Below, in pieces: positions 1-45,100 of a DNA stretch of 64,000 nucleotides. The notes beneath the pieces are model-generated. The model saw nothing but the letters and a program-made list of their open reading frames with translations. It had not been told where the DNA came from and did no database searches. A program made the translations under genes and the position numbers. Location of the stretch: contig JAJSPD010000021.1 of the NCBI GenBank assembly GCA_021307315.1, positions 434,001 through 498,000 on the forward strand, in the 5' to 3' direction. Origin of the DNA: Bisporella sp. PMI_857 (lineage: Eukaryota > Ascomycota > Leotiomycetes > Helotiales > Helotiaceae). Within the stretch, counting starts at the first letter, position 1. Each line of letters starts with the position of its first letter.

Positions 1-672
1 AACTCCAAGCTGGATGATAAGCAGAGAGATTATGTCCAGGAGCCAACAAGGCTGCTCCATCCGAAGCCGACCGATTCCTACCATGACCTTTTGCCTTTCC
101 AAGTGTCCTCAACTTGTATATACTCCCCGGAATATCCAACAAGGAATCTCCAGCTTCCACATTAGATGACGTATCTTGGCCCTTATGCTTCTCCCAAAAT
201 TCCTCCAAAACTTTCGTCTTCGAGGCATCGCCAATAAGCTCACTAATCCTGTCAGCACTTCTATCCTTACAATTAAATACCAATGAACTCACATTGCAAT
301 CCCCTTTAACGCCTCCGCATGTTTCCAGCCCCTTCCAAGACGTCCATAACTCAACGGCACTAACACACCAACAGCGCCCATCCGCGCATTCCTCTGCTCC
401 TCCTCCGCCTCCGCACTCACGAACGCGCTCAGACCCGCATACTCCCCATGCACAAAATACACCAGATCCTCTTTCACCGTATGCAGTCCGCTAGGCAAGG
501 ACTTATATTCAACGACGCCGTCAAGGGTGATGCCGGCGAGGGAGCGTTTCCATGTGACAGTGTAGCCGGCTTTGATGTCGAAGTGGATGAGGAAGAGCGC
601 GGAGATGGGAGGGAGATCGGCGGGCGAGAGGTCTAAATTGATCGGCCCTTGGCCTCGTCGGACAGCGGCCAT
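1..672 (-). CDS. DENN/LCHN-type conserved protein (DUF4484, Anr2-like), 3' part outside window
   Basis: N-terminal part of a conserved fungal protein of the LCHN/DENND11 type (DUF4484; yeast Anr2). The family is tied to membrane traffic by distant DENN similarity; exact role unknown. Two exons are visible: 293-672 and 1-248, joined across a 44-nt intron (249-292, GTGAGT..ACAG) that keeps the frame. Exon 1 holds the family's hallmark start (FLIHFDIKAGY, then VVEYKSLPSGLH and GVLVPLSYGRLGR); exon 2 ends in LSAYHPAW, also typical. The first true ATG is at 672 (MAAVRRGQG); longer readings need a TTG start. The rest of the gene lies left of base 1. No lesion seen. It is a good syntenic left anchor for the accessory block. 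Confidence 0.88.
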
Positions 673-1440
673 TGTGCGTAGGATGCGAGGGACATTGGAC
701 GTCAAGGCAAGGAGATCTGACAGGTTGCCTGGACCGGCTGTCAAGGTGTCGTGTTGGAACGGAACGGGTGTGGCATGTGGGGTTCATGGCGCCAAGAATT
801 TAGTCAAGAGTTCAGTCAACATGTTGCAGGTATCAGATAATAGGTATTCTTCTATATATAAATGCCAGGCTTCTACAGTAGACAGTCAAAAATGGTTCTC
901 AGACTAAAATTGGAACATGAATTTGAATACACTTAATCTGATGCACATATATTGTAAGGCTACGATAACCCTTTGACAATCCTCTGTGTGCTTGAAATGG
1001 CCCTCTTCTACATGACCGAAAGATATAATGAGAAATTACTTTGGGAAATGCGATTCGACACTATGACAGGGTATTCCAAAGTCATGACCTCCTTTACGCA
1101 ATCTGATAACCAGTCCATGTCATACATTTGTCAGTCTCTAACGATCCTCTCGAGCCTCCTAGCCCAATTCTTCCTACAATTAATCGCCACAAAGTTCAAC
1201 CTGCTCTACCTCGCCTTGCTTATCTTGATTATCTTCCAGAATATCGCCATTAAAATGGCCAGGCTCACCATATCACACTGGCTGAAAGTCCTCGTCCGCC
1301 TTGGTCTAATTCTCATTTCAGAGTTGGTCATCCCAAGTCCTAAACTCATCATCAGGGTAATAATCCATCGTCGATAGAGTAAGGCTGTCTTCACAGTAAT
1401 CCTCCATTCCTCTGAGGACCTTTCCTCCCCTTAAAATAAT
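673..1440. other. Intergenic, promoter side of the DENN gene
   Basis: No recognisable gene. A TATA-like stretch (tctatatataaa) lies near 850-861 on the plus strand. A 134-codon open frame at 973-1377 has no start context or recognisable domain. Confidence 0.4.
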
Positions 1441-2143
1441 GCTTTGTCAAAAAACAACTTCGAGCCACCGTTTGTGACTCTCGATAATGTTCTCTTCGCT
1501 ATGAACTTTATATTGGCCCAATTCGAAGCAGGAAACAAGGCATATAAGAACGAGCTTATAATGGCACGGATGTATAACTCCGGCTGGGGGAAATTGGACA
1601 GCTTTACCGACTAATCGCCAGTCTATGTTGCCGCGATTGTTCTTCAATTTTCACATAAATGGAATACATTCAAGAGAATTGGAACAAGGAGTGGGTTGAA
1701 TCTTCAAAGAAGCTGATGGAGACGCTTTAAGGTGAATGCAAACCTGTCGAGCTACCTGTTCCCCAGCTTCAAACACTATCGATACTAACGAATGAATTAT
1801 CGAACTGAAGGAATAAGCATCCACATCCAATACTTCTTACAGACGAATAGGAACGTTTATTGCAACTCCGGACGGTTTTGCGGTTTCACAAGTACACTTG
1901 CTTGGTAGTTAGAGGACACATAATAAAAGAGCTTTACTCAGCTCGTGCAAAATGGCTGTAGACATACTATCACTTCCTGCAACGTCAGCCGAACCCGAAA
2001 GACTTTATAGCGTAAAGATGACTATTACAGATCGCCGAGATCGGCTTGGAAGTGATGTGATTGAAGCGTTAAAGCATTTGAAGGCATGGTTTGAAATACG
2101 AGATATTCAGGGCGACCATATTTTAATAGTAGCAGTTGAATAA
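1441..2143 (+). mobile_element. hAT-family transposase relic
   Basis: Degraded 3' part of a hAT superfamily DNA-transposon transposase. Around 1486-1610 the plus strand reads LDNVLFAMNFILAQFEAG then MARMYNSGWGKLD, and about 1660-1715, after a frameshift, YIQENWNKEWVESSKKLM. The last block (1952-2143) is the hAT C-terminal dimerisation domain: ILSLPATSAEPERL then DRRDRLGSDVIEALKHLK. Stops and frame changes separate the pieces, so it cannot make an enzyme. The N-terminal BED finger and catalytic core are not seen. Confidence 0.85.
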
Positions 2144-2300
2144 TAAGGAATGTATTGGATGTATTATTCCGCTGGCAATACGGTACAATATCGACCAATT
2201 CAATATTGGCTAATACAATACTCACCACTCAACAATACAATAATATTGCGAAGCGATCATATTGCCAATATGTATTGTTTATCTTATTAGCAACACTATT
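2144..2300. repeat. AT-rich tract with repeated AATA/TATTG motifs behind the hAT relic
   Basis: Immediately 3' of the transposase relic the sequence is filled with short repeats of caata/aataca and their complements (for example gcaatacggtacaata, ctaatacaatactc, acaatacaataatatt). hAT elements often carry subterminal repeats of this kind that bind transposase, so this may be the element's right end. I could not fix a terminal inverted repeat or target duplication. Confidence 0.45.
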
Positions 2301-2565
2301 GACATAACCAATTAATCAAGCTGTCTACGTTATCATTATACCTAAATATTTTAAATTCTTTACACGTACTAGAAATATTTAGGCGCTTGGCCATTTCTTC
2401 TAACAGTGCGAAGGCTTCGTGCGATAGCACTCTCGTATTTAGGGAAAATGCTTTTCTGTTTGAAAAACTGATCATACTGCCAAGACTCTCCACGTTTTCA
2501 ATGAACATTACAATTTAACATTAACAAGACTTCACTTATATTTTGAACTCAGGAGCTGTGAAATG

Positions 2566-3886
2566 GACGACGTCGAAATGCTGCAGCCAAGACTTCTATT
2601 ACCTGCGATGGTGGCAAAGCTCTTAAGGTGCACTGTGCGAGTAAGATTTGCTCCCTAGCATCCTCTCTCCCTTGTCACATAGTATTATTGATTCATGAAC
2701 AGAAGCGGAGAGCCTCAATTCCGAATCCTGCACGAGTTGTACCGTGAAACCAACATGCCTAGCATAACGAGGATACGCCAGACTAATTGTTGAACTCAAG
2801 AAACGCAAGATACCATGCCATTGGTAATGCCATTCCATAGTTTTGTGGCAGCGCCAACGTTGATTGCAGTACATTTTAACCACATCCACACGTTGTATCC
2901 TTTACTAGATCGAAAGGGATTTGAAGAGAAAGTCGCCAGTACGCAACACAGCTACCACCTCCAAGTTGATCCCTCCTTTTCGGCCCTGTACCATGCTGTG
3001 GTTGCCCTTAGGTGCCAGTATCAAGATGGTGGACCCTTCTATCCTGGAAAAGGGATGTTATGGAAGATCTATCAAACTTCTCTGGGGCTGCTTTCCGAGG
3101 TTAGAGGGACTACTAAATGTTCAAGTGGATTTACTCAATCAATCAACTTCTGTTTCGTGACTAATAAAGCAAAGACTTTTACTGCAGTAGCGCGACTATG
3201 CTATCTAAACTATTATACACTTCAGCTGATATCAAACCACAGGCTATTTTTGCTCATAAACCATCCCGTCTCTAGATTGGGAACATGTTAACTAGTGAGG
3301 CAGCTAGGATGGCTCATTTTGTTGGTTTAATAAACCAACTTGTTGTGGTGAGAATGAGATCGTGTATCACCGCACCTTTCTGGGAATCTACATCCTTGAG
3401 AAGACGGTGCCTTTTGCCTGTGGCAAAAGCTTCTGTAATATTCCCATACCCAGTCCAGCAGGAGCCAAAATTTGCTAGGTGTTTTAGGTCCTAGCTGATT
3501 ATGATATCTGTTCTCCAGTTCCTGAAGCCTCCGATGCAGTCTTCCAAGGTTTTGATTGGGTTTTTACTATGGCTCGCTTTAGTCGCCTGTTGTCCAGAGC
3601 GTATGAGATGTTTTTCTCAATCAGCGCAACTTTGAATTCAACCGAGGCATCTTAAACTGTTATTGAGACTACAAACAATCATCTTGAACGCTGGAGGAAG
3701 TCTATTGCCGAAGGTTTTCTATCGGGTGACATCCTTCCAATTGACACTTTTTGGACCCTTTTCCATTAGGCGGTCGGGTTAAGAGTGCAGTATTACTATT
3801 ACAGTACTGTTATCACCTTATCTCAGATGTCTCTGTGCCTCATAGGGCCGACCATTAATTACCTGGAGCTCCGCAAGTAAGTCTTG
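2566..3886 (+). pseudogene. Broken Zn2Cys6 (fungal_trans) transcription factor
   Basis: Remains of a fungal zinc-cluster regulator. Near 2568-2640 a degenerate DNA-binding region is visible (RRRNAAAKT..CDGGK..C). From 2850 the middle-homology (fungal_trans) domain can be followed in three frames: FNHIHTLYPLLDRKGFEEK, VDPSFSALYHAVVALRCQYQ, then SEAARMAHFVG near 3294, YHRTFWGIYILEK near 3365, and GFDWVFTMARFSRLLSRAYEM near 3553, ending ..ERWRKSIAEGF and LRVQYYYYSTVI near 3790. Stops (for example the TAA at about 3653) and frame changes separate the blocks. A decayed pathway regulator fits the other broken cluster genes nearby, but its targets are unknown. Confidence 0.82.
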
Positions 3887-4727
3887 AATATCATCTATTG
3901 GGGGCAAGAATGAGCCTCGCCAAGATATTCTCTTCGTGCCAAGTCCTAGAGACCCAGCACCTTGGTTGAAACACAGGTTAAAGATGGAGGTTGGTATTTC
4001 AGGTGTCTGGATAATGGCGATGTAGCCTGTAGGCAATCATTGAAGCATCGGCCCTCGTGTAGCCCACAGTGGTAGCTTATAGGGTTTATGAACCTATAAT
4101 TACAGACTACGTACCACTGTAAACTAAGCATTCGATTCTTGTTCACTATCGTAGGCTACAAGAAGGGCTGGGCCTTACCGTACTCTTGGACCTCCAAAAG
4201 ATCGCCGGATCAATGGACAAAATAATCAACCTTTTGGTCAATTCGAAAGGTTTGATGATACACCTATTGCATTTATGAAACCCATATTACTGGTCAAATG
4301 GGGACAAAATAGGTCGATTTATTGATAAATCGCGATCCGGCACGCCTCACCTCTCCAGGGGCTAGCCATTTTCGAGAGGATTTGACCTTGTTAGTGGAAA
4401 GGTACACTGGGCGGCAAGCGTGAGCTCTATTAGCAATCTATGCACATTTAGCCAAAAACGCCTCGCCATGTCTTATTATGGACGTGGTGGTAATTTGGTG
4501 GCACCGCACTATTGGGTTCAGGTCGTCAAATAAGGCTGTCACGACTCTTACCGTCCATGTTCGCAATGCCCTCTATATAAAAATACCTGCACAACCCGTC
4601 TTTCACTTTATGCTAGCTAGGCTCACAAGAACGATCTGAAGTCAAGATCCACGCTCCCATCTTCAATCTACAGCTTGAAACTGCTCTTTCTCCTAGAAGC
4701 TCATGGTGTGAGCTAGCTGCTCCCACA
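3887..4727. promoter_or_regulatory. Upstream region of the GPI-protein gene with TATA box
   Basis: No coding frame recognised. A TATA box (tatataaaa, 4575-4583) sits about 150 bases before the ATG at 4728. A decoy ATG at 4703 is followed by a stop after two codons. Confidence 0.45.
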
Positions 4728-5418
4728 ATGATCCTTTCTCAACTTCTTATCTCTACGGGATGTCTCCTCATCGCGTTCTCCCATGCGCTGGAGGATAGCT
4801 CAGCCCAATTAGCGACGCCTAAAGACCTCAAGAAGAGGTATACGCTTTCATGTGAGGTATGTACCGCGTGAGCATGCATCCCTTCCTCTTGTGTACACTA
4901 CCAGCTCTTCCATCAGGCAATTGCTAAGTACCCCGTGAAGTGCCATACCATCAAGTTCGACTCCGGGTCGTGTAAAGGCTGTACCATGACTGGGCTTGGC
5001 ATGGGTAGCTGCAACGAGCCATATCACTGCGCCAGTTGCAGTACGGCGCTAAAATACTGCGAGAGTAGTCCAGGGTGTTCGTTCGATGAAGCGGAATTCT
5101 TGGGCTGTGTTGATAACTTGGGAAGTAAGTGCAATAACCCCTCGCTGTATGGACCAATGCAAGAAGATAGAGGAGTCTTCCTGTTTGCTGATAGGGCTGG
5201 CATTGGCAGGCGGTTCGGAAAATTCCTCGAGTTCGAAGTTGACGAGCTCAATAAGCAGCAGCCACCCGACGGGCGTTCCGGTTGGTTTGAGTACCAGTAC
5301 AATTTCCAGTGCCGTTACAACCGCCACGGCGAAGCAGAATGGCGCTGATAGGTTGGTGTCGGAAAATGGATTGGCGAGGTTGTTGGCACTTGTCCTTTCC
5401 ATAGTCCTCGCTCCTTAA
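4728..5418 (+). CDS. Small secreted cysteine-rich protein, probably GPI-anchored
   Basis: Predicted 181-residue secreted protein from three exons: 4728-4856, 4917-5124 and 5210-5418. Intron 1 is GTATGT..CAG (60 nt); intron 2 is GTAAGT..GGCAG (85 nt) with a CTGAT branch site about 17 nt before its end. Residues 1-20 form a signal peptide (MILSQLLISTGCLLIAFSHA). A compact domain with ten Cys follows (VKCHTIKFDSGSCKGC.., ..CASCSTALKYC..), then a Ser/Thr-rich linker and a hydrophobic C-terminus (ARLLALVLSIVLAP) typical of a GPI signal. Without intron 2 the frame runs into a hydrophilic tail with no anchor, so the spliced form is preferred. No family recognised; a cell-wall protein or effector-like role is inference. 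It is the only intact gene in the first 14 kb of the accessory block. Confidence 0.68.
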
Positions 5419-7316: not shown

Positions 7317-7563
7317 TGTAACAACTCAAGGCGAACAGGGATCTCGATCCGTGGATCTCAGTAGAAGGACTAAAAGGTACGAAAAAGGTATGAACGGCTA
7401 TCAATTGTTATAACGAAAAGAGCAGGCTACAAATGGAAGAAAGGAAGGAAAACAGTGCTTTATATACAGGAGACTGGCCAGGGGCCAGTGTAAGTGAGTC
7501 GGCCCTGTCGTGTCAGGGGCCGAGACCTAGGGCCATAAGCGAGGTTGTGCCAGGGCCGTGACA
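7317..7563. mobile_element. Solo LTR with 5-bp target-site duplication
   Basis: A 247-bp element begins TGTAACAACTC and ends GGGCCGTGACA, so the tips form a short imperfect inverted repeat (TGTAAC/TGTCAC) with the TG..CA ends of LTRs. It is flanked by a perfect direct repeat, tgttt at 7312-7316 and tgttt at 7564-7568. An internal TATA motif (tttatata, near 7460) fits an LTR promoter. No internal retroelement sequence or second LTR is adjacent, so this is a solo LTR left by recombination. Short LTRs of this sort are common in Copia-type elements; that assignment is inference. Confidence 0.85.
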
Positions 7564-10371: not shown

Positions 10372-11679
10372 ATGTCGTACCGTTTTAAAATAGTGGTATT
10401 TGCGGGCGATAATTGTGGCCCTGAGATGATGAATGAAGCACTGAAGGCTTCAACTCCAAATTCGTTTGGCCCTTTCGTTGCAGAAACATTTGTACGCGCT
10501 CAAGCCTATCATCTTAAGGTCCTTAAAACAGTTGAAAATCATCACCCAGCCATCAAATTTGATTTCGAAGACCACTTATTGGGAGGGGTAAGTCACACAG
10601 CGAATTTTCGCTAAACCAGACCTCTACGTGGTAGTATAATTAATGATTCTTCAGGCCTCTATTGATGCTACAGGTTCGCCTCTTGAAGAAGAAGCCATAA
10701 CTGCGGCAAAGAATGCCGATGCCGTACTCTTGGGAGCCATTGGCGGCCCTGTAAGTTCACTTTGATAAATCCCCAATATCCGTATCGGGTACTCTATGAT
10801 CGATATAGACACACTAGTTGAATGAAAGGCATCTCTAGAAATGGGGCACCGGCATGATACGCCCTCCTTCGGCTTCGCAAAGAGATGGATGCATTTGGAA
10901 ACTTAAGACCTTGCAACTTTGGGCCACGCAAAGAGCCCGGCGAGTCTTTATCATATGCAGAGGACGTGGACCAATACACACGTGAGCAAATCGAGCGGGT
11001 GACAAGGCTGGCTGGTTATTTGGCCATTCAACACAATCCGCCACTGCCAGTCTGGAGCCTCGACAAGGCCAACGTGCTTGCGGCAACGAGTAGACTATGG
11101 AGAAGTGTGGTGAGTCAGACACTCGAGAAGGAGTTTCCAAAGATCAAATTTGGCCACCACCTAATCGATTCGGCCGCCACACTGATGATAAAGCGCCCGA
11201 CGGCCCTAAATGGTGTGGTGTTGACAAGCAACCTTTTTGGAGAAATAGTCTCTGACGAAGCCAGTGTCATCCCGGGCAGTCTCGGTCTCTTGCCCAGGGC
11301 AAGTCTATGCTCGATACCGAGTAGCGACAGCGATGGCAGGGTTAAAGGCATCTATGAGCCGGTCCACGGTAAAGAATGCTCTTCCCAATCAAGGGACTTC
11401 ACATTTAATTACAAACGAACACTGACATCTCCATTAGGCTCAGCACCAGATATTGTCAGTATGAACCTGGTCAACCCCATAGGCACCATTCTTTCGGCAA
11501 CCATGATGCTGAGGTACTCACTCGCGTTGCCTTTGAAAGCTGATACAATTGAGGGGACTGCCCTCGGAGCACTAAACTCTGGTGTGAGGACTGCCAATAT
11601 TGGAGGGACGTCGAGCACGACTCAAATGTCTGATGCCATTATTGGAGAGCTGGAGAAGCTGTTGCAGAGCGGCAAATGA
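10372..11679 (+). pseudogene. 3-isopropylmalate dehydrogenase (leucine pathway) paralogue, core deleted
   Basis: The family oxidises 3-isopropylmalate with NAD in leucine synthesis; cluster-borne copies also serve as resistance or precursor enzymes. Exons: 10372-10587, 10655-10750, 10839-11368 and 11438-11679, with clean GT..AG introns. Typical blocks remain: [72 protein letters not shown] and the C-terminal NPIGTIL and GVRTANIGG. Two lesions: a short deletion with frame change at about 10868 (after MIRPP), and loss of about 38 residues at 10920, fusing RPCNF to FGPRKEP. The second removes the VRELTGGIYFG block with a substrate-binding Arg and the catalytic Tyr. Exon 1 also carries about 23 extra residues after NEALK. 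It cannot be active. Confidence 0.88.
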
Positions 11680-12181: not shown

Positions 12182-14145
12182 ATGATATTAACCATGCTGT
12201 CATTCCTCACTACAACCCTATATGCGCGCCATTCAGAATTCTGGCAAAATGCGTCCACATCGTTGATGAGCCTCAGAGTACTGGCTGCGGTGGTCCTAAT
12301 TGCAACTCTCAGACTATGGTACGTCATATACCGGGCAATTACTTCTCCACTGCTTGACGTTCCAAGGCCATTTTTAGCTCGGTTCACGAGGCTATGGAAA
12401 TTGTATACAATCTACCGCGGGAGGTTCGAGAAAGTCAACATAAGTCTGCATCAAAAGTACGGTGAGTCGGCCGGATAGTGTTTCAGTCAATCAGTCCATG
12501 GCACATATTATATATAATACTTACTTTGTTTCTCAGGCCCGGTTGTCCGGATCGCTCCTAATGAGTACAGCCTCGACGACCCCGAGGCCGTAAGTATAAT
12601 CTACGGGATTGGGGGCGACTTTAGAAAGGTAAATAGGCACCCTATTCTACCCTAGTCTGACCTTGGTAAGGTCTTCTTGCTTTCTATAAATCTGGTTATT
12701 ACTATTACCGTCTAACCCCCAAGTTATAGAGTCACTGGTATATTGCAAGTGGTAACCCTGATCCTAATGGCCCGCAAGACCTCTTCTCGATTCGTGACCC
12801 AAAAAATCATGCCAGCATGTGCTGGCTAGTAGCAAGTTTGTACTCGATGTCAAATCTGGTCAAGCTGGAGCCATACGTTGACCACTGCTCTGAGGTATTG
12901 AAACGTAAATTCGAGTAGTTTTCCAGGTCTGGAGTTCCTGTTGATATGGCACACTGGTTACAATGCTATGCATTTGATGTGATTGGAGAGATTGCAGTCA
13001 GTTCGCAGTTGTATACAACACCTACAATACCACTTTATTTCAGGAGGTCATGCTTACGAGTCTTCATCCTAGGTTGCAAAGCCTTTTGGATTCATGGGAA
13101 ACGGCGATGACATTAATGGCATCATGGCATCCGTATCGCAGTATCTCTTTTACGCTGCCCACGTAGGTATCTACTCAGAATGGCACCGCACCGCTTCTTG
13201 GATATCATCATATATATCCTCAGGTAAAGGTCGAGGAGCCATGACAGCTTTTACTAACAATTGCGTCAATGAAAAACTTTCTGAGAAAGAATCTGAACAT
13301 TCGTTGGCGCAATGCAATTTCCTCAACAGTCTTATGGCGCAACACAAGGCAGACCCAGAAAAAATAACTATGATTATGGTGACCGGTACATGCAGAGTTA
13401 ATATCGGTGCGGGTTCTGACACGACTTCGATTAGCCTGAGCTCGGTCATATACAACCTTTGTCGGAATCCAGGAGCCATGCAATCCTTACGGGATAAGAT
13501 CGACGGAAAAGCAGCGGTTGGTGAGATCTCTGATCCTGTGACTTTTCAAGAGGCGCAGAAGATGCCATATTTGCAGGCTGTCATCAAGGAGGCTATACGA
13601 GTACATCCTGCTACAGGACTACCACTCGGCAGAGTAGTCCCTAGGGGGGGAAAGCTTATCGCCGGTCGCATGTTTCCAGAGGACGTAAGCCATACACATC
13701 TTGACCAAAGTTAGTTCTTTGATTCATGATATGAATCATAACAGACGGTTGTGGGAATTAACTCGTGGGTTGCCCATGCCAACAAGGAAGTATTTGGATC
13801 AGATGCCTCATCCTTCCGTCCGGAGCAGTGGCTGGAGGACCCTGAGAGATCAAAAGGGATAGAGAAGTACTTCTTCACGGTATGCCACGTTGCGCTGAGC
13901 CTAGTTTCGTTTCAACTACCATGAGGAATGAGAAATGTTAATATTCGTGTGTTTAGTTTGGCATAGGCTTTCGTACTTGCATTGGAAAGAACATTAGTCT
14001 CTTGGAAATGACCAAAATGGTTCCACAGCTGATCAGAAACTTTGATATTATGCTTGACAACGATGGTTGGCATACAAGGAACTCTTGGTTTGCGAAGCCA
14101 TATGATTTCCAATGTCGGGTAGCTCCAAGATTGAATAAAGGTTGA
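12182..14145 (+). pseudogene. Cytochrome P450 (pisatin-demethylase-like), single nonsense codon
   Basis: Membrane-anchored fungal P450 of the pisatin-demethylase type. Six exons: 12182-12461, 12537-12628, 12730-12996, 13073-13684, 13745-13879 and 13957-14145, adding to 525 codons, the usual family length. N-terminal hydrophobic anchor; GPVVRIAPNEYSLDDPEAV; oxygen-binding I-helix NIGAGSDTTSI; K-helix EAIR; heme loop FGIGFRTCIGK. The only clear break is TAG at 12916-12918 (codon 187), in LKRKFE*FSRSG where the family has Glu. Intron 3 has a weak GTCAGT donor. All catalytic motifs survive, so inactivation is recent or a sequencing matter. The ORF start upstream of the ATG at 12182 would need TTG. 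The substrate is unknown; neighbours suggest a tailoring or detoxifying role. Confidence 0.86.
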
Positions 14146-14935: not shown

Positions 14936-15958
14936 CTATTCATTTATTCCTTCAATACTAGTGAAAGGGAGCTTAGCTGGAAAGAGACTTGCCCGGTGCC
15001 TCGTGTACCATTCTAAATCATGTGCCATAATGATTTCAGTTCGTTGCAGACCTTCGCTGACGCTGTTTGTAAGTTGCCTAATTCTTCTAATAGTCTCCTC
15101 AGCCTTTGGCTTGTCCAAATGTATGCAGTGAGTATATCCTCCATCATCTTCCCAAGTTGCAACAGCTCTTTCTCCGCTGAGTAACCGCGTGTCGTGGCAA
15201 GCATCTCCACCCAGGTAAACCCAGTTTTGAGGTCCAATGCGACACAGGAGATTTATATGTCCCGGCAGATGTCCAGGACTATCAATTATATAAATTGAAC
15301 CGTCACTAAGCAGGTCCATGCCAAAAGGAAATGGACCAATAGGAGCCCACCTAAGGCTAAGGGTATTACCAGTCTTGAGAGCGACGTTCACCGATTGACC
15401 TTCGGAGGCCGTGGGTAGCTCAATAGTGCGGCCGTCTGGTAGTATATCTGGCTGGAAATGTTGGTGGGATGCAATACCCCCAAGGCCGCGCTGAAGGATA
15501 TTTAGTGATCCGCTGCCTAAGACAAAGGTAGCCTGCTTAAAATCTTCCGGATCTCCATGGTGGTCGTAATGGACGTGACTTAATAACACAATATCAATGT
15601 CAGTTGCGGCACTTAATCCTCCCTCGGACAGCTTCACAGCAATACTTGGTCCTAGCGTAAAGGGTTCGCGGTTTTCGAGGTGCTTCTGTTGTTGCAATGT
15701 GTAATCCTGAGACCGCGAACGCAACCCCAGGTCAAACATCAATCGAACTGGTGATTTTTGTTGAGTTTTAACTTCTTTAAATCCCGGATGCGTGATAAGA
15801 AATGCTAGCGAGGGAACGGTTTTCTTTGCTTCTGGCTCGCTAGGATATACAAAGAATTTTTCAGGCAGTGTGATGAAGCCTCCAGCGAGGGCTGAGACGG
15901 ATACATAGTCCTGATCCAAAACTGGCTGAGGGAGGGCCATTTTGCTGGCTCCTATCAT
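14936..15958 (-). CDS. Metallo-beta-lactamase-fold hydrolase
   Basis: Intact 340-residue single-exon enzyme; ATG at 15958, TAA end. The metal-binding motif H-x-H-x-D-H is present in LLSHVHYDHHGD (about residues 126-137), with further ligands expected in SPGHLPGH, GGDACHD and MAHD. Fungal proteins of this architecture include lactonases and thioesterase-like hydrolases of polyketide clusters, and quorum-quenching-type lactonases; the sequence alone does not choose between them. No signal peptide, so cytosolic. It sits between two P450 genes that are broken, and is the one intact enzyme of this sub-block, so it may keep a detoxifying role on its own. Confidence 0.88.
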   Translation of the reverse strand: MIGASKMALPQPVLDQDYVSVSALAGGFITLPEKFFVYPSEPEAKKTVPSLAFLITHPGFKEVKTQQKSPVRLMFDLGLRSRSQDYTLQQQKHLENREPFTLGPSIAVKLSEGGLSAATDIDIVLLSHVHYDHHGDPEDFKQATFVLGSGSLNILQRGLGGIASHQHFQPDILPDGRTIELPTASEGQSVNVALKTGNTLSLRWAPIGPFPFGMDLLSDGSIYIIDSPGHLPGHINLLCRIGPQNWVYLGGDACHDTRLLSGERAVATWEDDGGYTHCIHLDKPKAEETIRRIRQLTNSVSEGLQRTEIIMAHDLEWYTRHRASLFPAKLPFTSIEGINE

Positions 15959-26624: not shown

Positions 26625-28687
26625 CTATTCCAAATGAGGTCCAGGTGATTTCGGATTTGGTCTCGGTCCTGAAGCGGGATCTGACTTGGGACCTGGCTTG
26701 TGAGGTTTGGGTTCTGGAGCTGGTGTATTGTCGCCATTTATCTTGTAAAAATAGGTTCCACAGCCGACATCAACACTTGCGGTGGTTGCCATATTCTATA
26801 AGGTTAAATATACATTAGCATTCACCCGCTGACGGTTATATACAACCTTTGTACACTATAACTTCAGACGACTGGATACGACTTACATTTTGTTGGCCAC
26901 CTCCATGCCCACAAGGCGATAATGCCATGCGTTTATATGCTTCATTGCAAACACTACTGCAGGTTCTACTTCCACTAACAGGTGTCCAATCAAGTTCAAA
27001 ATTATACGCTGTATAAGAACCTAGATTAGGAGGAGGTGTTCTTCTAAGGCGCCGACGACGGCCTGGTGACTTTTGTTTGCCGGAAGAGTCGACATTCCAC
27101 AACAACTTAGTCTTCTGGGATTTGCCTACTGTGTCGCAGAAGCCGCCGAATACACTCCCTGCAGTACCTGTGAAGATGTTATACGGTACGCCACTAACAA
27201 TATTTAAGTCGCATTTTGGCGAGGAAGTTGAGCCAGCTGGAGGTGTGACTGCAATAGCCGCCTGCGCGCCGCCATACTTATCTCCACATCCTCCGTAACG
27301 AGGGCTATCAGGAGGGTTTTTCTCACGCCCATCTATCAATTCTCCGTCCTGGATATCCGTGGAGGTTGCGGCAGTAGGCGAGGAGGTCTTCAAATCCTCA
27401 TCTGATTTGGTATTACCATACAGTGGTTCCTTGTGGGTTATCGAATCCCGTGGGTTTCCATATACCTTTTTTGATCCCGGACTAGGATCACTAGGGTACA
27501 TGCCGATTTGGTCTTGCAAATATATTGCAAGCGCAAAATATGCATAGTTATCTGCATTCCGCTGTGCGTAATAGCCCGACCATTTAGCAGCGGAAGGGCG
27601 CCAATTTCTTATCATTTTGGCGGCGTAGGGGCTGTAACCCATGTGCCAGTCGAGTTCCTTTCCGTCGGCGTACTGAACCTCAAGATCCGAAACATATGGG
27701 CTTTTCGAGTCAGCCTTATTTCCAGCGTTCATGAACCAGTCCAGATGAGTTATTTCATGAAAAAAACAGCGAGCTCTGTTGTTCCATTTCGCTAAATCAC
27801 GCTTGTTAGCAACAGAAAGTTTCTTCCCCTGAGTGATTGCATCGCTGAAGGTTGGTAAATTGAAAAAATTGGTGCAAAAGGTGATTCGGTTATATTTCTG
27901 CTTTGGATCGTATTTATTTGGAGCGGTATCACTAAATGCTTCTGACTTCCTCTCACCCCGACCAACAGGCAGTTCACCAGTTGCAGGGCAGTTACCATTC
28001 TTTGGGGGGAGTCTTTGGCATCACCACACACATCCGATGGGTCGGTACTTTTCTCCCCTTTAATGCCGTCGCTGCATCTGACCTATAATTTCGTAATCTT
28101 TGCTAATATTTTTGTATAAGACTCAAAAATGTACCTCAATCCAGAGAACCTGCCACCAGGTCCATGGGTGCGTTGGAAACGGCCTCATCCATGGATAGTT
28201 GTATATTTGTTGTGACGCAGCAAATATTTCCGTAATCAAGCACTCGTTAGCTACTCCTCACAAGACACTTATTTCAGGGTTTTTATATGGTGGCTCACGT
28301 TGTATTTCTGCCCGACGCTCGTCGGAGAGCTTATTACGTCCACTTTTAGGGCCTCAGAAGTCGCTGTCCGCATCTCCATTCCAATCTATTTTATTCCACA
28401 ATTTTGGCTGCTGGGCTAGTGTGTAAAAGTCGTCATAAGCATCCGAAATTGCTTGTTTTTCACCACTCTTGCAGCCTTTCCATCCATACAGGTGTGTGCC
28501 TCTGATATTCTCAATGGTGGGATTAGCGCCGTCGGCTGTCGTGAGGGAAGGGTATGGTGGAAATAGACCTTTAGAGAAATCTGGTGCCTCGGTCATGATT
28601 TGGGATAAAGTAATATTTGGGTTTGCAGTCGTCATTGTGTACAGAGAAAGGAAGCAAAGCCACTTTGAAATGGCTCCAGTAAAACAT
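26625..28687 (-). pseudogene. Zincin metallopeptidase with Pro-rich tail, broken
   Basis: Fungal metallopeptidase of the zincin class. The zinc motif HExxH occurs as FFHEITHLDWFMN near 27745, followed by YADGKELDWHMGYSPYAAKM (third ligand region). N-terminal exon (from about 28635): MTTANPNITLSQ, YGWKGCKSGEKQAISDAYDD. A hydrophobic start (MFYWSHFKVALLPF) at 28687 lies one frame away and may be the true signal peptide. C-terminal intron 26796-26886 leads to TASVDVGCGTYFYKINGD and a tail of K-P-x-P repeats ending TAG at 26625-26627. Lesions: TGA at 28354-28356 where Trp is expected (SDF*GPKSG), and a one-base loss in a C6 run at about 28004-28009. Other family motifs and introns are intact, so loss is recent. 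Likely an extracellular protease. Confidence 0.78.
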
Positions 28688-29714: not shown

Positions 29715-31368
29715 TTAGTTTAGAAGGCTAATTCTTCCAGCGGCCAGTTTTACAAATATCTCATTACACCGTGCAGGACCCATCATTCCTAAGGTCGCAC
29801 AAGCACGTGTTCGCCGCCGACTTTCGTACTCACTGTCCGTGATATTGCCACAGCGGCCATGTGGGCCAAAAGCATAAGTCTGCTTCTCCAGCCATGGGAC
29901 ATGTCCGTTGCAGAAGGTCACCCATTTGTTACGGATGCTTTGCTGAACCGCCGCTACAGCTGCATTTTCTGTGAAATCAAGCCTTCCAAAAAGCATAGTG
30001 AGCTCGACTGCATGATGTGCTCTGCTTGATGACTGCCATGGGTTGGCCTGATCAAAGACATAGTCATAGACAGTTTTTCCAGCTTGACGATATGCGGCTT
30101 TAATTGCCATAACTGGATATGCGAATCTGACATCGTTGATAAAATCCAGTGCCCCGAGTTTGCATGCTGTTGGCCTGTCTATAATAATGTTGTACAGCCG
30201 CTTTAGCTCCTGAGTGTTGTCAATATCCGAGTCGAAGCATGCTTCGATTTCAGCAGCAGTCATAGCTTCAACACCATTGCGCCATATGACGGACTCATAT
30301 TCGACATCTCCTACCAGAAGTTCTTCGACGTGACTCATTCGAGTTTCCCAGCCTTGTAGATCTTCGGTCAGCTGCAACCACATAGAGACAATTTTTGACT
30401 CTATGAGTGCGCCGAGTAGCTTTTGCACTGGGGCGCTGGCGAGAGACAAGCCATCTTTGGCTAGTATTTCTTCTAGATGGCCGCACATTGCATCGCCACG
30501 ACTCATGTCCTGCGGTGGTGAGAGATAAAGAGATCCGGATTGCAGGATCGCTCTTTGCACGGGGGCACCTGTAATCATATGAGCGTGGACGTAAACAGCG
30601 CCTGCACTTTCTCCACCCAAGGTCATATTATTCTATATGTATAAAGATGCGTCAGTGTAAGAAAACTAGCTTGTAGCAGAGCAGCGCTGACCGGATCTCC
30701 GCCAAAGAGTTCGATATTCTTGGCGACCCATTCAACCGCCAGCCGCTGATCTTTGAGCGCGAGATTCTTGCTTCCATGTCCATTTCCGAATGCAAAGATG
30801 TTTAGCCTGTAGTTGACAAATACCAAAATCATGGGCTCGCCTTCTTTGATAGAATTTGCCACAAATGGAACCGTATCAGCACATGGTGAGGATGCCGGCA
30901 TAAAGGTCATAACCTGCGAGCCTCCTGAGCAGCGTCAGACGCGAGTCTATTTACTCTACATACTGGGGATGACTAGCCATGAATCCAGATCAAGACTGGC
31001 AGTCTCCTGGAAGGCGTTGCTGGTACTGTGATATCCAAGTTCAAGCAACCGAACTCATCTTGCTGCAAAGGCGGCTCCTGGGCTTTGATGCTTTCTGGTA
31101 TGCGCAAGAGATGATGAAAGTCTGTAGAAACTTGTGGACATATCGGTCTGAATTCCGTTGTGTTAGCAGAGGTCCAGTGCGTAGATGTTTGGAGGCCGTC
31201 TGAGGAAAACCCTCACCCATATTTTGTACAGTCAACTTTGTCAGTCAAATTATCATACGAGATGGCTTCAGGATTTGCAAATCTTGAAGGAATTCTACCA
31301 TACGGAATTCCTCTGAATTGCTGCACCTTCTGGCCATCGAAAATTTCCACAGCAGGCTGGAAGTGCAT
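29715..31368 (-). CDS. Carboxylesterase type B (esterase 1)
   Basis: 490-residue alpha/beta-hydrolase carboxylesterase (cholinesterase/lipase family). Exons on the minus strand: 31217-31368, 30978-31147, 30692-30924 and 29715-30632; frames join exactly. N-terminus VEIFDGQKVQQFRGIPYGR; CLNLDITVPA; LPVLIWIHG; FVNYRLNIFAFG; nucleophile GGESAGAVYVHAH (Ser in G-E-S-A-G); catalytic His probably in SSSRAHHAVEL. No signal peptide, so probably intracellular. Intron 2 (30925-30977) needs a GC donor (GCTAGT) instead of GT; the GT alternatives break the frame (IHG* next codon TAG). If that donor does not splice, the gene is dead. It lies head to head with esterase 2, whose ATG is 469 bp away. Confidence 0.83.
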
Positions 31369-31837
31369 AACAAAGGATCCGCCCTGAGGCATGCTGAACT
31401 AACTTTACTACGATATCAATGAGATTTCGTACGATTTTAGGGTGACATGGGGATCGGGCAGATATGGGCAAAGATGGTGTAATGCAGAGTAGTCCTTGGT
31501 TTTCTGCACATTTGCTCGGACAACATGAAGTCGTACAAAGAGAATACAGAAGGATCAGAACAACACGAATAGTTTTTTTGTATTCATTCAATACTGTCTG
31601 TGCTTGCTGCCTTTATGTGAGGTTGAGCAAAAGAGACCCCACATCCTAACTGTAAGGGTACCCCGTAGATTCCCCCACCCAACTTATTAATGACAGCTGA
31701 TTGTGCAACCTTCGTACTGCCCGCCAGGCTTTCTCCACGTGATGATTTGCAGTGTATAAGAATTACATCGCGCAGAGGCATCATCGAACTTTGTATAGAT
31801 TCTTGCGATCCAAGTGTTCACATTCCACCGACACAAC
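31369..31837. promoter_or_regulatory. Shared divergent promoter of the two carboxylesterases
   Basis: 469 bp separate the two start codons (31368 minus, 31838 plus). No other gene fits here, so both promoters must lie in or near this segment. A short TATA-like motif is not obvious; regulator sites cannot be named. Confidence 0.55.
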
Positions 31838-34212: not shown

Positions 34213-35362
34213 ATGACTACGTATGACGTAGATGACGTCGAGTTTACAGCTCTGAAACGGAAGACTATTCTCATAACCGGATGTGCAACTGGTATTGGAA
34301 GATCGGCAGTTGATCTTGCATACCGTAAGTTCTCAGCCATTCCTGAGCATGTCACTTCGCTCTGCTTCACAATATATATATTGGAAATAAAAAATCGCTG
34401 AATTCCATCTCGCAGAAAATGGAGCAAACCTGATTCTCGGAGATGTTCAAGAGAAAGAAGGTCAAGAGCTAGCAACTAAGCTTGGAGAGTGAGTATTATC
34501 ATGGTTCCCGAGAACTGCTGCCGGCTGACTCCCCTCCAGGCGCGCCTTGTTCCGTAAATGTGACGTGTCCATCTGGGACGACGTGCTAGAGCTGTTCCAG
34601 GCCGGGCAGATCCAATATGGCGGCATCGATGTGGTGCTCGCCAATGCAGGCGTGAATGAAATCGGCAATCTGTTCGAAGACGGCATTGACACCGCAACAG
34701 GCAAACTCGAGGCGCCAAACCTCGCAACGCTAAATATCAACCTTCTGGGTGTACTTTACACGGCTAAGTGCGCGGTGCATTACTTCATGAAACAGGAGGG
34801 AAAGCCGTGCCAGCTTGTGCTAACAGGGAGCGCGGCCTGGTAAGTTGCTATACGCATGTTGCAGATGTGCTGGACATGTAAAAGGCGACCGAATAGCGAG
34901 CTGACGTGGTGAAAAATATAGCTTCCTGGACACCCCGCCGCTGTATACGTATTCTGTAAGCAAAGCAGGTGTGATGGGCCTGATGCGCGGGCTACGGACT
35001 CAGCTCCCCAAAAACAATAACGTGACGGTTAATATGGTAGCGCCGTGGATGACGAGTGAGTCTCTGCTGATGCCGCCTCCCGAACTACACCGGCCCGCGG
35101 AAGTTAACGTGATCCAGAAACCCCCATGCTCTTGCCGGAGTTTCTAAATGTCTGGGGAGAACTTCCCGCCAACGAACCGATTGGCGTCGCTAGGGCGCTT
35201 CTATTACCCGCAGTTCGGCCAGAGCTGAACGGGAAGTCATTCTTCGTCGCGGGGTATGAGATTGTGGATTTTGAAGAGGGTTTAGAGAGGACAAGGCCAG
35301 AGTGGATGGGAGTACAGCTAAGTGAGCATGTGGATGAAGGACAAAGGAGGATTCTGCCGTGA
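34213..35362 (+). CDS. Short-chain dehydrogenase/reductase
   Basis: 287-residue NAD(P)-dependent oxidoreductase of the classical SDR family, nearest in look to fungal 15-hydroxyprostaglandin-dehydrogenase-like proteins. Exons: 34213-34324, 34416-34488, 34540-34839, 34922-35055 and 35118-35362. Cofactor motif TGCATGIG (residues about 23-30); DVVLANAG; active-site Ser before CFLDTPPLY; YTYSVSKAG (Tyr-x-x-x-Lys); VAPWMT then GVARALLLPAVRPELNGKSF. The last intron (GTGAGT..CCAG, 62 nt) is needed: without it the frame ends early and the conserved C-terminus is lost. All catalytic residues are present, so it should be active. Oxidises or reduces a small alcohol or ketone, substrate unknown. Flanked by esterase 2 and the broken homogentisate dioxygenase. 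Confidence 0.9.
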
Positions 35363-35768: not shown

Positions 35769-37506
35769 TTATTGATTACCATTCCGATTTGCCTTGGTGA
35801 GGCGGAGAGCCAACAGCTTCTTAACTTCCCCTTCGTGCTTCGAGAAGTTATCTGTCCAGTTTTTAAGTAATTAATCAGGTACGAGGAAACCAGGACGTCA
35901 TCCTATACCAACGAGGTTATCCCACATCTTAGGATCATGTTCCCGCTTCCTGTTGCTATTCCAAGCATAGTCCGTAATAGTGAATGGCCTTGAACTCTCA
36001 AACACGAAGGCAATTGCGCCTTTGGATATGACCATTACGGGTGACTCATTCTCAGTTGCAGCCTTGAATTGCTAGTAGGCAACACCGTGCGGCACCATCC
36101 CACACTCATATGATGCGCCACCAGGCAAGAAATCGTCAGAGCGACCTCCGTACTCGCCATATAGGAGACCCATGAACTCCGATGCTACGTTGCGGTGGTA
36201 GTAAGGTGGTCTGTATGTGTGCGAGGCTGCATCCCACCGAGGCGAGAAGATGAGAAAGTCGGCAAGTGGAGCGGCCGGGTCGCGAGAGCGTGCCGTCAGA
36301 ACACAGAAAATGCTAGGGTCAATGTGGTCCACGGAGATAGATCCCACATTAACAAACTTTGTGAGACCATACTTGTAGGGGACCTGGAAATTCGTGTCAA
36401 CGCTCCAATAACGTGACCACTGCAGCTCTAGAGAGACTCACATAATTTCCGTGCCAGGCGACCACATCAAGCGGACTGTGCTGTTGAGTGCTCTGGAAGA
36501 ACTTTCCCCCTAGCTTGTAGATGACACTCCAGCTCTCTTGCTTAATCTCGTAATGGGCGGTTGGATGGAAGAAATCTCTAGCGTTGGCGAGGCCATTGGC
36601 ACCAAGTGGTCCCAATTCTGGCAGCTCAAAGTTGCTTCCCCAGATCTCAAGGATATAGCCATGGGATGGTCCATCTGGAACGGCGACCTTGAATTTCTGG
36701 CCTCGCTGGATGACCACGATTTCGCCCGGCTGCACGAATAGCATACCAAATTCGGTTTGGATGTCAAGAGTACCCTGTTGGGGACAGGTGAGGAAGTCAC
36801 CGTCAGAGTTACAAAAGCACTATTCTTCATATTCGAATTCGCAACGTAGATGTGCGTGGCGATGCCCTCGCGAAGGGTTGGGTCTCCGGATCCGGCAATT
36901 GTCTTCAAGCCGGCGACGAAATCAACGTCATTCCCAGCGGGGATTTCAAATGGGAGCCACGCGAGCTGAGTTGGGGATATGTGGACCCTGCTATTGATAG
37001 GTAGGAAGTTTGATTCGGTGTCGGGGTTATCTGGAAGGTCAGCCTGTGGATTGTCAATTGCGGACACGAATATTGAAGTCAAGTACGATCACAAATCCCT
37101 AATGAGCCACCGAAGGTCGTGCACGATAGAGCCATGCCTTTTTTTTTAAGTGTCTAGGCGCTACAAATGCAGAAGCGATCATTTGCTCGGCATAGAGACC
37201 AAATCGAACGTTTCTCGGGCTGTTCTGTCCCTGTGGCGGAGTACCTGGAACTGCTTCAGATGCGAAACTAAAACATATTAGCGTAGCGTCCGGAAAGAGT
37301 GATTCTCAGCGATAGTAATACGTATTGTTGAAGCCAGATTGATACTAAAGAAGGTTAGGGATCACTTTGAGAGAAACAAATACAAAAAGTACCTCATACG
37401 GGTCATTCTTTCTAGTCCCAAAAGACGGCACCGCTCCATCTTTCTGGGTCTCTGCCCAGTGAAAGATATCTTGGTATTCTGACGAGTTGGCGAGTTTTAC
37501 ATGCAT
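35769..37506 (-). pseudogene. hmgA-like: Homogentisate 1,2-dioxygenase, two amber codons and a frameshift
   Basis: Fe(II) ring-cleaving enzyme of Phe/Tyr and phenylacetate breakdown (homogentisate to maleylacetoacetate). ATG at 37506; first exons 37393-37506, 37322-37344, 37093-37267, then from 37043, with further introns after HGNY (GTGAGT) and after DNLV (GTATAG). Family blocks: [102 protein letters not shown] at 35769-35771. The iron ligands (His of YYHRN, Glu of SEFMG, His of VPHGV) are kept. Lesions: TAG 37099-37101 (SVAH*GF), one base lost near 36811 (FV/NSDGDF), TAG 36072-36074 (GVAY*QFK, Glu expected). Probably a second, cluster-borne copy. Confidence 0.9.
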
Positions 37507-42112: not shown

Positions 42113-45100
42113 ATGACAGAGCATGAGCATGGGCTGGGAGCGTCCGGACTGAGGCGGATACGACAGCAACCAGCTATTTCTGAATCTTCCTCACGGAATC
42201 CATCCGTAGGGCCACGGTCGGGATCTATGAATCTCACCACATTCCCAAGCCGGTCTGCCTCTCTAGCCCTTGCTTCGGGCCCTTCCTCACCATCATTAAA
42301 CTATGGTGAAGATCTCACACGCTTTCCTTCCGAATCTCTGCACTCTTTCTCATTTGCACATCAATCCGAAGAGTTTATACATAATCGCCAGAACGTGTTG
42401 AAGAGGTCCGTGGAATTCATGACACAGAAATTAGGATGGGGAACAGCCAACAATGCAGGAATTGCCAGCGCGCAAGCACGAGTGAGTGGTGATCAAGAGA
42501 TGCAAGGCATGCTAGAGCTATTAGCCAGGGCGCAACTGGTCGGAGCAAACAATATTGCAGGCTACGGTCAATCACACCTCCTGGGACCCTTAACTGGTCC
42601 AACTACAGCAGAGGAACCCAATCTGTTTGACAAAAGTTTTGTACCACGATCGCAGAGTCCTGAGCTTTTTGAGAGCCCTAGCTCCTCGCCCACAACAATT
42701 AGGAAACCTACCACACCCAATGTTCCACCAACTGAGACAAATTCGAAGGACACAGGATCCAATTTACCAGTCACTGCTGAGGCAGAGGCATCTATCGAAA
42801 ATCCCCCTAATGAAAGCCAACCCCCCGTTGTAACGGCTCCTCCCACCGCAAGACGGCAAAGTTTAAGAAGAACGTACACCGACACTGGCCCGCTCTCACT
42901 TCAAAACAAGCTTATGGATACACTGGCGCAACCTTTCATAGCTGGCGATAAATTTCATGATCAGTTATCATCGCCTACCATACCTGGAACCGGTCCTTCA
43001 TTTGTAGTTTCTACATCTCATCCATTAGGCCCGGCAGTGCATGGCCATTCGAGTCGATGGGCTCCGGCGGCACAAGCCATATTCACAACCGAGTGCACTT
43101 CACCCTATACCATCCTAGCAGCGAACGACCTTGCATGCCTTGTTTTTGGTGTTACCAAAGCCGAAGTGCGGAAGGTGGGGATACTGGAAGTGGTTCAGAA
43201 AGAGAGAAGGTCATGGCTGGAGGAAAAGATAGGGTCTTCGGGGATTAGCTCAGAACCGTCCAAGCAGACTTCTCGATTACCTGGCGGCCACAGTGCACAG
43301 CCAAGCCCTACTTCAAGCACTTCTTCACTGTTGGGAAGAGCCGGTGTGACTGCCCATCTCCTCAACAAGCCCAATTCTCGTCAGTCCAAGCAGATGCAAC
43401 AACAACAACCAACGCGTCGAGCACAGTCGGATGATGGCGCAGGTTCAAGCATTGTAGCCAGGTCGAAGGCAGCTAAAGTTGGACTAAATCACCCAGGAAA
43501 TGCATCACGAGGAGTCTTACTTTGTGGCGATGTAGTCCCGATTCAGAAACGAAATGGCGCCACTGGAGCAGCCAGTTTGTGGGTGAAGGAGAAAAGAGGC
43601 GGGTTAATATGGGTTCTGGAGGAGATTCATGAAGACGTTGCGGTGCTGAGTTTTGATGATGATGCGCTACTCACCAAATTTACTGGATCACCAGAACCAA
43701 TCTGGGGTGATAATATTACCCAGATTGGTGTAGATGTTGGAAAGTTATTACCAAGAATATCCCGGCAAGGCATCGACGGAAGAAGTGGGGAGATCGATTA
43801 CGCAGAAGTCACCAAACGAAGATACTATACAGCTAGAAACTCCGGTCGTGTCAATATTCCATGTATAGTTGATAGAGTTCCAGGTGGAACCGATCTCAGA
43901 GTATCCAGTTTTCCACATATTGCCGGCATCATGGTACTCTCCGCAAAAACGCTTGCAATTACAAGCTCTAACTCAGTATTCTCCGCTGCACTGTTCGGAC
44001 AGGAAAAACCTGATGGTCGGCCGATAACTGACCTTATTCCTGACTTCGACCGCATTCTTAACTTCCTCAAGGAGGAGGAAGGCACCTCTCTCGTGGAGGG
44101 TATTGTGATTCCAGAGCACAGTTTTCGGCGTGCTAGAGCTCATATGGCAGTACAAGACGGTAAGGTCGAGGCTGCTGCATACTTTTTGCGACCAGATGGT
44201 CTGCCAGCCAGGCACCGGGATGGATCAGAGATCAAGATTGATGCTCAACTCAGAGTGGTCAAATCGGAAAAACCTGGCCCTGTGTTTGACGAAAATGTTA
44301 TAGAGGAGATAAGCGACGAGGACGAAGATTCACGTATAGTGAAGTCAGAAACTCAAAGTGAGCTTGTATATGCACTTTGGATCACATATTCGAGGCAGAT
44401 TCATGCCAATAATGACCATCTTGGAGCCGCATCGCCATATATGTCGGGCGCTCAGACGCCATTACACCAACCTTCACCAGGACAGCCAGATGTGGCTAGT
44501 CCTATGGAGATGGACTCAGATGAACCTAAAAAGGAGCAATCCCATGCTTCTCTCCTTACAACCCAATTGAAGGCGGCTGCTAAAAAGACTATTGCTAAGG
44601 TTACTAGACATGAGATGGCACCGCCTCCAAAACCAGAGAAACTTAAGGAGACTGGTCCACCGCCTGGTGTTGTGGAGGCGGTTCCAAAGAAAGTGATCGA
44701 TGACTTCACGATACTTGAAGAGATGGGGCAAGGTGCTTATGGTCAAGTAAAGCTTGCACGATATAAGAAAAATGGCAACAAGAAAGTTGTGCTTAAGTAT
44801 GTTACAAAGCGACGCATTCTTGTTGATACATGGACTCGAGATCGGAGATTGGGAACGGTTCCGCTCGAGATTCACGTTCTAGATTATTTACGACGAGATG
44901 GCCTGAAGCATGCCAATATTGTTGAGATGGCGGATTTCTTCGAAGATGATATCAACTATTACATTGAGATGGTACCTCACGGCTTGCCCGGCATGGACCT
45001 CTTTGACTATATTGAGCTCCGTGTTAATATGGAAGAAAACGAGTGCCGAAGTATATTCGTTCAGGTTGCCAATGCGATCCACCATCTTCACACGAAAGCA

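What the first reader, a model, noticed from the sequence alone, without database searches (positions are those of the whole stretch)
672..42113. 41-kb accessory block in mid-decay between two conserved genes
Between the intact DENN/LCHN gene and the intact PAS kinase I count ten broken genes (regulator, DapA-like, leuB-like, two P450s, alpha/beta hydrolase, MFS pump, small conserved protein, zincin, homogentisate dioxygenase), two transposon relics, and five intact genes (GPI protein, MBL hydrolase, two esterases, SDR). Regulator + P450s + hydrolases + exporter is the make-up of a biosynthetic or degradative cluster. Many members differ from working form by one to three changes, so decay is recent.
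Basis: partly seen in the sequence, partly recalled or inferred. Interest (0 to 1): 0.75.

Follow-up and report, generated by a model that had tools for sequence, protein, structure and literature searches.

The report
Recently silenced fungal metabolic gene cluster
In a cup-fungus genome, a 41-kilobase stretch of enzyme genes has lost most members to recent small mutations, and related gene groups, one intact and one also decaying, sit elsewhere in the same genome, so it looks like a once-working cluster, probably for breaking down aromatic compounds, that was switched off.

Summary
The window lies in Bisporella sp. PMI_857 (Leotiomycetes). Six of the ten 'broken' genes have a Pfam domain over cut-off and stops or frameshifts that normal introns do not explain: DapA-like, leuB-like, two P450s, alpha/beta hydrolase, second-type homogentisate dioxygenase (HGD2). 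The zincin-like gene and MFS pump are broken too, with weaker identification; regulator and small protein stay tentative. MBL, esterase 2 and SDR are open; esterase 1 has one GC splice donor. Nine other P450 genes of this genome show one frameshift in all, against 14 lesions in 11 block genes. No sign of RIP.

The cluster reading gains support within the genome. HGD2 and MBL paralogs lie together on contig C9, both broken. Relatives of P450#2, esterase 2 and a P450#1-type gene sit side by side on C270, no lesion seen. The hydrolase's only other hit lies about 2 kb from a P450 on C100. I read the block as a degradative-type cluster shut down recently under relaxed selection. Pathway, substrate and synteny in relatives are untested. 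A new member of a known kind.

The parts
1..672 (-).
   Evidence: open model starting at 672; the family was not tested with a library
1913..2140 (+). hAT transposase relic (C-terminal dimerisation region)
   Evidence: Pfam PF05699, 35.2 bits against cut-off 21.4
2794..3700 (+). possible regulator remnant, heavily eroded
   Evidence: by eye only; no Pfam family at E 0.1
4725..5418 (+). small secreted cysteine-rich, GPI-like protein, possibly open
   Evidence: by eye; poor gene-finder model
7317..7563 (.). solo LTR, target-site duplication TGTTT on both sides
   Evidence: 43 further matching places listed at 76-85% in the genome
8026..8989 (+). DapA-family gene, broken (2 stops, at least 1 frameshift)
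   Evidence: Pfam DHDPS 65.8 bits; two pieces collinear with chain 3qfe_A on either side of the first stop (the first piece at E 0.93 only)
10372..11679 (+). leuB-like (3-isopropylmalate dehydrogenase family) gene, broken
   Evidence: 69% of aligned columns to P0242 with frameshift and 33-residue gap (60% by BLAST of the piece)
12182..14145 (+). cytochrome P450 #1 (public name: putative pisatin demethylase), one stop, otherwise complete
   Evidence: 61% to P0122, 5 introns, single TAG at 12916-12918
14936..15958 (-). metallo-beta-lactamase-fold hydrolase, open, 340 aa
   Evidence: best hit other than itself 63%; Pfam hits below cut-off
16580..18421 (-). cytochrome P450 #2, two frameshifts
   Evidence: 66% to a model of the C270 paralog; read by eye
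20440..21333 (-). alpha/beta hydrolase (PcaD-like), one stop
   Evidence: Pfam 52.2 bits; NCBIfam pcaD E 1e-10, under its cut-off; open C100 paralog
23640..24750 (-). MFS transporter remnant, many lesions
25219..25990 (+). small protein, unclassified
26839..28635 (-). zincin-like metallopeptidase candidate, 1 stop and 1 frameshift
   Evidence: HEITH motif read by eye; no library hit
29715..31392 (-). carboxylesterase 1, open apart from a GC splice donor
   Evidence: Pfam 42.4 bits
31838..33641 (+). carboxylesterase 2, open, 526 aa model
34213..35362 (+). short-chain dehydrogenase, open, 287 aa model
   Evidence: Pfam adh_short 27.3 bits, cut-off 26.6
35829..37506 (-). homogentisate dioxygenase, second type (HGD2), 2 stops and 1 frameshift
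   Evidence: HgmA_N 184.4 bits
42113..45552 (+).
52773..54450 (+). MFS drug pump outside the block, also broken (family by eye)
   Evidence: in-frame stop within 53671-53687 and further disruption after 54.15 kb

Best explanation
The block is an accessory metabolic gene cluster of the degradative type in the Leotiomycete Bisporella sp. PMI_857. It has recently come out of use and is being dismantled by independent point mutations and small indels. Most likely mechanism while it worked: the P450s hydroxylate or demethylate an aromatic (plant- or lignin-like) compound; HGD2 opens a hydroquinone-type ring; the MBL-fold hydrolase, the PcaD-like hydrolase and the esterases open lactones and esters; the SDR and the DapA-like aldolase process the products; the MFS protein moves substrate or product. 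Once selection relaxed, the members picked up stops, frameshifts and small deletions one by one. Shown: the lesions, their rarity in control P450 genes, and paralogs of these families lying together at other loci. Inferred: one shared pathway, the aromatic substrate, and relaxed selection as the cause.
For: Lesions in otherwise well-kept genes: P450#1 has 5 introns and one stop; leuB-like, HGD, P450#2 and hydrolase checked against homologs or paralogs. Control: 8 own P450 genes without stop or frameshift in 11,694 coding nt, and a ninth with one frameshift (L037). No RIP signature in 32 of 32 two-kb windows. Linkage of paralogs: C9 carries the only other HGD2-type copy found (0-1.1 kb) and an MBL paralog 52% identical to the window's at 7.7-8.6 kb, plus a P450 at 10.6 kb that is 39% to the C270 relative of P450#2. 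C270:70.5-76.2 kb holds an esterase like esterase 2 (46% over residues 16-335), the P450#2 paralog (66%) and a P450#1-type gene, adjacent, with no stop or frameshift in the parts read. Esterase 2's two best other places in the genome (C101, C270) are 2 of the 3, among 41 esterase places outside C124 (merged by hand), that lie within 10 kb of a P450. The hydrolase's only other hit, on C100, lies about 2 kb from a P450. Degradative clusters with ring-opening dioxygenases are an established kind of locus (PMC10735191, passages).
Against: Some members do not fit one pathway (leuB-like, zincin-like, GPI protein, small protein). Decay depth is uneven (MFS and regulator far more eroded). An MFS pump outside the block is also broken. 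Colinearity in another species was not tested; the P. egyptiacum hint is 1 of 4 species. The C270 P450#1-type gene is only 39% to its best template, so not a close relative of P450#1, and the openness of the C270 P450#2 relative needs an unusually short 36-nt intron. Accessory genes tend to collect in the same regions anyway. The substrate is guessed from family names. Whether the open genes are kept by selection is undecided: the lesion heterogeneity test gives p = 0.18.
Confidence: 0.5

Rival explanations
1. An accessory-gene graveyard: a tolerant spot between two conserved genes where unrelated dispensable genes and transposons gathered and decay independently, without ever forming one pathway.
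For: Mixed gene content; uneven decay; a solo LTR and a hAT relic; a broken MFS outside the block; C9 also holds broken genes.
Against: Paralogs of the same families lie together on C9, C270, C101 and C100. For HGD2 the only other copy found sits about 7 kb from an MBL paralog of the window's MBL.
Confidence: 0.28
2. A dying biosynthetic (secondary-metabolite) cluster that lost its core gene; the leuB-like paralog would supply a chain-extended amino acid.
For: P450s, SDR, MFS, regulator remnant and a diverged leuB paralog (53% to the intact paralog of the same genome, P0301; 60% to Leu2A-named proteins of Ilyonectria). A leuB-type enzyme in a homotyrosine pathway of Helotiales is recalled, not looked up.
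Against: No PKS, NRPS or terpene synthase was recognised in the open frames that I read (the latter cut), though no targeted search for such genes was made. HGD2, PcaD-like and MBL families point to catabolism.
Confidence: 0.14
3. Artefact: most lesions are assembly errors or introns misread as lesions.
For: Three frameshifts lie in short homopolymer runs (HGD, zincin-like, DapA-like), and so does the one frameshift among the control P450 genes (L037).
Against: Seven in-frame stops by eye; an in-frame gap of 33 residues in leuB-like; PAS kinase and three other flank genes open; P450#1 stays broken unless a 30-nt intron removes residues that homologs keep.
Confidence: 0.05
4. RIP (repeat-induced point mutation) killed duplicated genes here.
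For: Diverged paralogs of several genes exist in the genome.
Against: RIP product and substrate indices are normal in 32 of 32 two-kb windows; lesions include indels; four DNA searches (window 1-29000 and 32201-42200) listed no close second copy. Searches did not list the window's own stretch either, so their sensitivity is limited.
Confidence: 0.02

Closest known systems
Fungal degradative gene clusters (DGCs) for plant aromatics (PMC10735191, passages seen; Gluck-Thaler and Slot 2018 only as cited there)
   Same: Enzymes, transporter and regulator remnant side by side; ring-opening dioxygenase, esterases, P450
   Different: The 13 core genes listed in the passage seen do not name homogentisate dioxygenase; here most members are broken
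Pseudogenised secondary-metabolite clusters, e.g. fusarielin-like cluster 4 of Aspergillus fumigatus (PMC5711037) and the dothistromin cluster of Cladosporium fulvum (PMC3895014), passages seen
   Same: Several genes of one cluster disabled, in A. fumigatus by independent frameshifts and stops
   Different: Those have known core genes and strain or species comparisons; here no core gene was recognised and only one genome was available
Canonical fungal homogentisate dioxygenase HmgA (open copy C216 of the same genome; type assigned from memory)
   Same: Same family (HgmA_N)
   Different: The window copy is a second type, 46% identical to the C216 copy, and broken
GAL pathway decay in Saccharomyces kudriavzevii (recalled)
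   Same: Parallel inactivation of several genes of one pathway
   Different: A known pathway in a well-sampled genus; not compared here

Membership tests
Pseudogene (per gene) | stop or frameshift inside a recognisable coding region, not removable by a normal intron | tested here: met
Decaying gene cluster | several neighbouring genes broken, above the genome's background | tested here: met
   14 lesions in 11 block genes (counts entered by hand) against 1 in 9 control P450 genes; the control covers one gene family only
Metabolic gene cluster | the same gene families linked at other loci or in other species | tested here: inconclusive
   pairs and trios linked within the genome; across species 1 of 4 species hints at it; the full set was not found together elsewhere
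Degradative gene cluster for aromatics | ring-opening dioxygenase gene plus accessory oxidative and hydrolytic enzyme genes at one locus | tested here: met
   HGD2, two P450s, hydrolase, esterases and SDR at one locus, HGD2 itself broken; the transporter is identified only weakly
Degradative gene cluster for aromatics | breakdown activity or co-induction by a substrate | not testable with these tools
   no expression data
Biosynthetic gene cluster | core synthase (PKS, NRPS, terpene cyclase, DMATS) | tested here: inconclusive
   none recognised in the open-frame lists; the listing was cut and no targeted family search was made
RIP-mutated DNA | high TpA/ApT, low (CpA+TpG)/(ApC+GpT) | tested here: not met
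   0 of 32 windows flagged
   no fungal genomes with coordinates at hand

The most novel reading that the evidence does not exclude
One fungal genome holds a family of related, HGD2/MBL/P450/esterase-based degradative clusters at several life stages: one intact (C270 set), one freshly shut down (this window), one further decayed (C9). They would be related catabolic clusters lost one after another after a change of lifestyle, with public gene models (two of two seen) papering over the losses by a tiny false intron or a truncated start.
Probability: 0.25. Interest if true: 0.6.

Novelty: new member of a known kind. Interest (0 to 1): 0.4.

Why it matters
If right, it gives a snapshot of a catabolic cluster being lost gene by gene, with intact relatives in the same genome to compare with. 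That would allow a test of whether gene loss in plant-associated fungi follows a pathway order. It also warns that automated gene models count dead genes as working: the public model of P450#1 removes its stop with a 30-nt 'intron', and that of the leuB-like gene is a 241-aa remnant.

Tried and rejected
RIP as cause: indices normal. Recent duplication with the block as the dispensable copy: DNA searches with window 1-9000, 9001-19000, 19001-29000 and 32201-42200 listed no close second copy; 29001-32200 was not searched, and searches did not list the window's own stretch, so they are weak negatives. Lesions as introns: excluded for P450#1 by homologs that keep the residues. Solved-structure search for the zincin-like protein: 0 hits. 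Third piece of the DapA-like gene against solved structures: 0 hits. Uneven lesion density as proof that the open genes are under selection: global test p = 0.18; the stronger figure (4 open genes receiving 0 of 14 lesions, p = 0.002) picks the genes after the fact and is not relied on. Lesion counts and gene lengths were entered by hand.

P450 control in full: 30 loci were cut out (several are pieces of one gene; two are the window's own P450#1) and compared, with the eight, to a fifth or sixth of the templates. Eight distinct loci with identity of at least 0.37 were clean. Re-running eight doubtful loci with all long templates: L037 (0.37-0.38) keeps a frameshift with its four best templates, and by eye it lies at a C-run, so I count it as broken or misassembled: 1 of 9. 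L028 (0.37 with one template) is clean with 3 of its 4 best templates. L023 is clean with 3 of 4, L035 with 3 of 4, L036 with 2 of 4, L024 with 2 of 4 and L040 with 1 of 4, all at 0.35 or less, too distant to judge; L038's call sits at the gene's end, where the frame is open. Further loci below 0.37 (L019, L021, L026, L027, L029, L032, L033, L039, L042, L002, L007, L008) were not counted; all but L008 show no stop or frameshift call there. The 20-nt minimum intron also allowed two implausible introns (20 and 27 nt).

P450#2 was not callable with P450#1-family templates and was judged by eye and against a gene-finder model of the C270 paralog; that model misses exon parts, so a third frameshift call near 17499 is probably a template artefact. 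Papers: PMC10734572, PMC12590662, PMC3895014, PMC5711037, PMC10735191 and PMC3510045 were seen as passages only; others only as search listings. One search ('degradative gene cluster', 'pseudogene', 'fungal') found 0 papers in the open library; that is all I can say about absence from print.
Full report
What was checked. The window is G000:C124:434001-498000 of a 55.6-Mb, 284-contig fungal assembly. Two public proteins identical to window frames name the host: Bisporella sp. PMI_857 (P0121; P0241), genus Bisporella, Helotiales, Leotiomycetes. I read the genes in three frames with attention to GT..AG introns, then used a spliced aligner that allows introns, frameshifts and stops where a template existed.

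Broken genes that stand. P450#1 (12182-14145, +) aligns to a Cadophora P450 at 61% with five introns and a single stop at 12916-12918. The public model hides that stop in a 30-nt intron (12905-12934), and homologs keep the residues this intron would remove. The leuB-like gene has a frameshift and a 33-residue in-frame gap against P0242; another leuB-family protein of the same genome, P0301, of full length (369 aa), is 53% identical over the piece searched. P450#2 has two frameshifts, also seen against a model of its paralog at 66% identity. HGD has two stops and one frameshift. The hydrolase has one stop, where a paralog on C100 reads on in one frame. The DapA-like gene has two stops and at least one frameshift; pieces on both sides of the first stop match the same solved protein in order, the first piece only weakly (E 0.93). 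The zincin-like gene and the MFS pump are broken, with weaker identification. The regulator and the small protein remain tentative.

Open genes. MBL (one 340-aa frame), esterase 2 and SDR. Esterase 1 depends on a GC splice donor. The GPI-like protein is undecided.

Is it more than background? In 8 other P450 genes of this genome no stop or frameshift was seen in 11,694 coding nt; a ninth, L037, has one frameshift at a C-run. The block has 14 lesions in 11 genes (MFS, regulator, small protein and GPI protein left out). More distant P450 loci could not be judged and are told under Tried and rejected. The flank genes modelled (phosphatase, sugar transporter, MFS at 49.5 kb; names by eye) and the PAS kinase are open. 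There is no RIP signature.

Did the genes belong together? Within this genome the families recur in company. C9: HGD2 at 0-1.1 kb (two frameshift calls) and an MBL paralog at 7.7-8.6 kb, 52% identical to the window's MBL, with four stops and two frameshifts against template P0002; a P450 at 10.6-11.9 kb shows no lesion in the part covered. C270: esterase, P450#2 paralog and P450#1-type gene side by side; no stop or frameshift in the parts read, though the P450#2 relative needs a 36-nt intron. Esterase 2's two best other places are C101 and C270; of 41 esterase places outside C124 (merged by hand from a capped list) only three lie within 10 kb of a P450, and these two are among them. The hydrolase's only other hit lies about 2 kb from a P450 on C100. 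These links are not the whole set, and accessory genes cluster in general, so I give the single-pathway reading about one in two.

How it likely worked. HGD2, the PcaD-like hydrolase, the lactonase-like MBL and the DapA-family protein (NCBIfam hits below their cut-offs) suggest breakdown of an aromatic ring after P450 oxidation. This is inference from family names; no substrate is known. The ordinary fungal HGD type is open on C216 (its type is from memory), so general tyrosine breakdown need not be lost.

Comparison with the known. Multi-gene inactivation within fungal clusters is known: A. fumigatus cluster 4 (PMC5711037) and dothistromin in C. fulvum (PMC3895014); pseudogenisation in lifestyle change is discussed in PMC3510045. 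Degradative clusters are known (PMC10735191); homogentisate dioxygenase is not among the 13 core genes listed in the passage seen. The finding is therefore a new member of a known kind, with some extra value from the related loci at different stages of decay in one genome.

Noticed in passing
window 7312-7568: Solo LTR of 247 bp (TG..CA ends) with target-site duplication TGTTT; 43 further matching places listed at 76-85% identity (521 candidates, 40 scored).
   Followed up: partly
window 52773-54450: MFS drug pump outside the block also carries a stop and further disruptions.
   Followed up: partly
G000 C9:1-8568 (L045, L061): Second locus with HGD2-type and MBL genes, both broken, plus a second MBL-like, an NmrA-like and a 3-hydroxyisobutyrate-dehydrogenase-like frame (names by eye).
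   Followed up: partly
P0121, P0241: Public gene models cover broken genes with a 30-nt intron or a truncated start.
   Followed up: yes
G000 C241 and C263: P450 and esterase hits recur with identical scores on both contigs in opposite order, as if one were a duplicate or haplotig of the other.
   Followed up: no
window 10438-10454 and 30968-30984: Two introns (leuB-like, esterase 1) seem to have GC instead of GT donors; these may be splice-site lesions or working GC-AG introns.
   Followed up: no
window 8029-8050: The likely start of the DapA-like gene appears out of frame with the rest across an A-run, a possible further frameshift.
   Followed up: no
L037 (G000 C135:494006-495325): A control P450 gene with a frameshift at a C-run, either a further dying gene or an assembly error.
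   Followed up: partly
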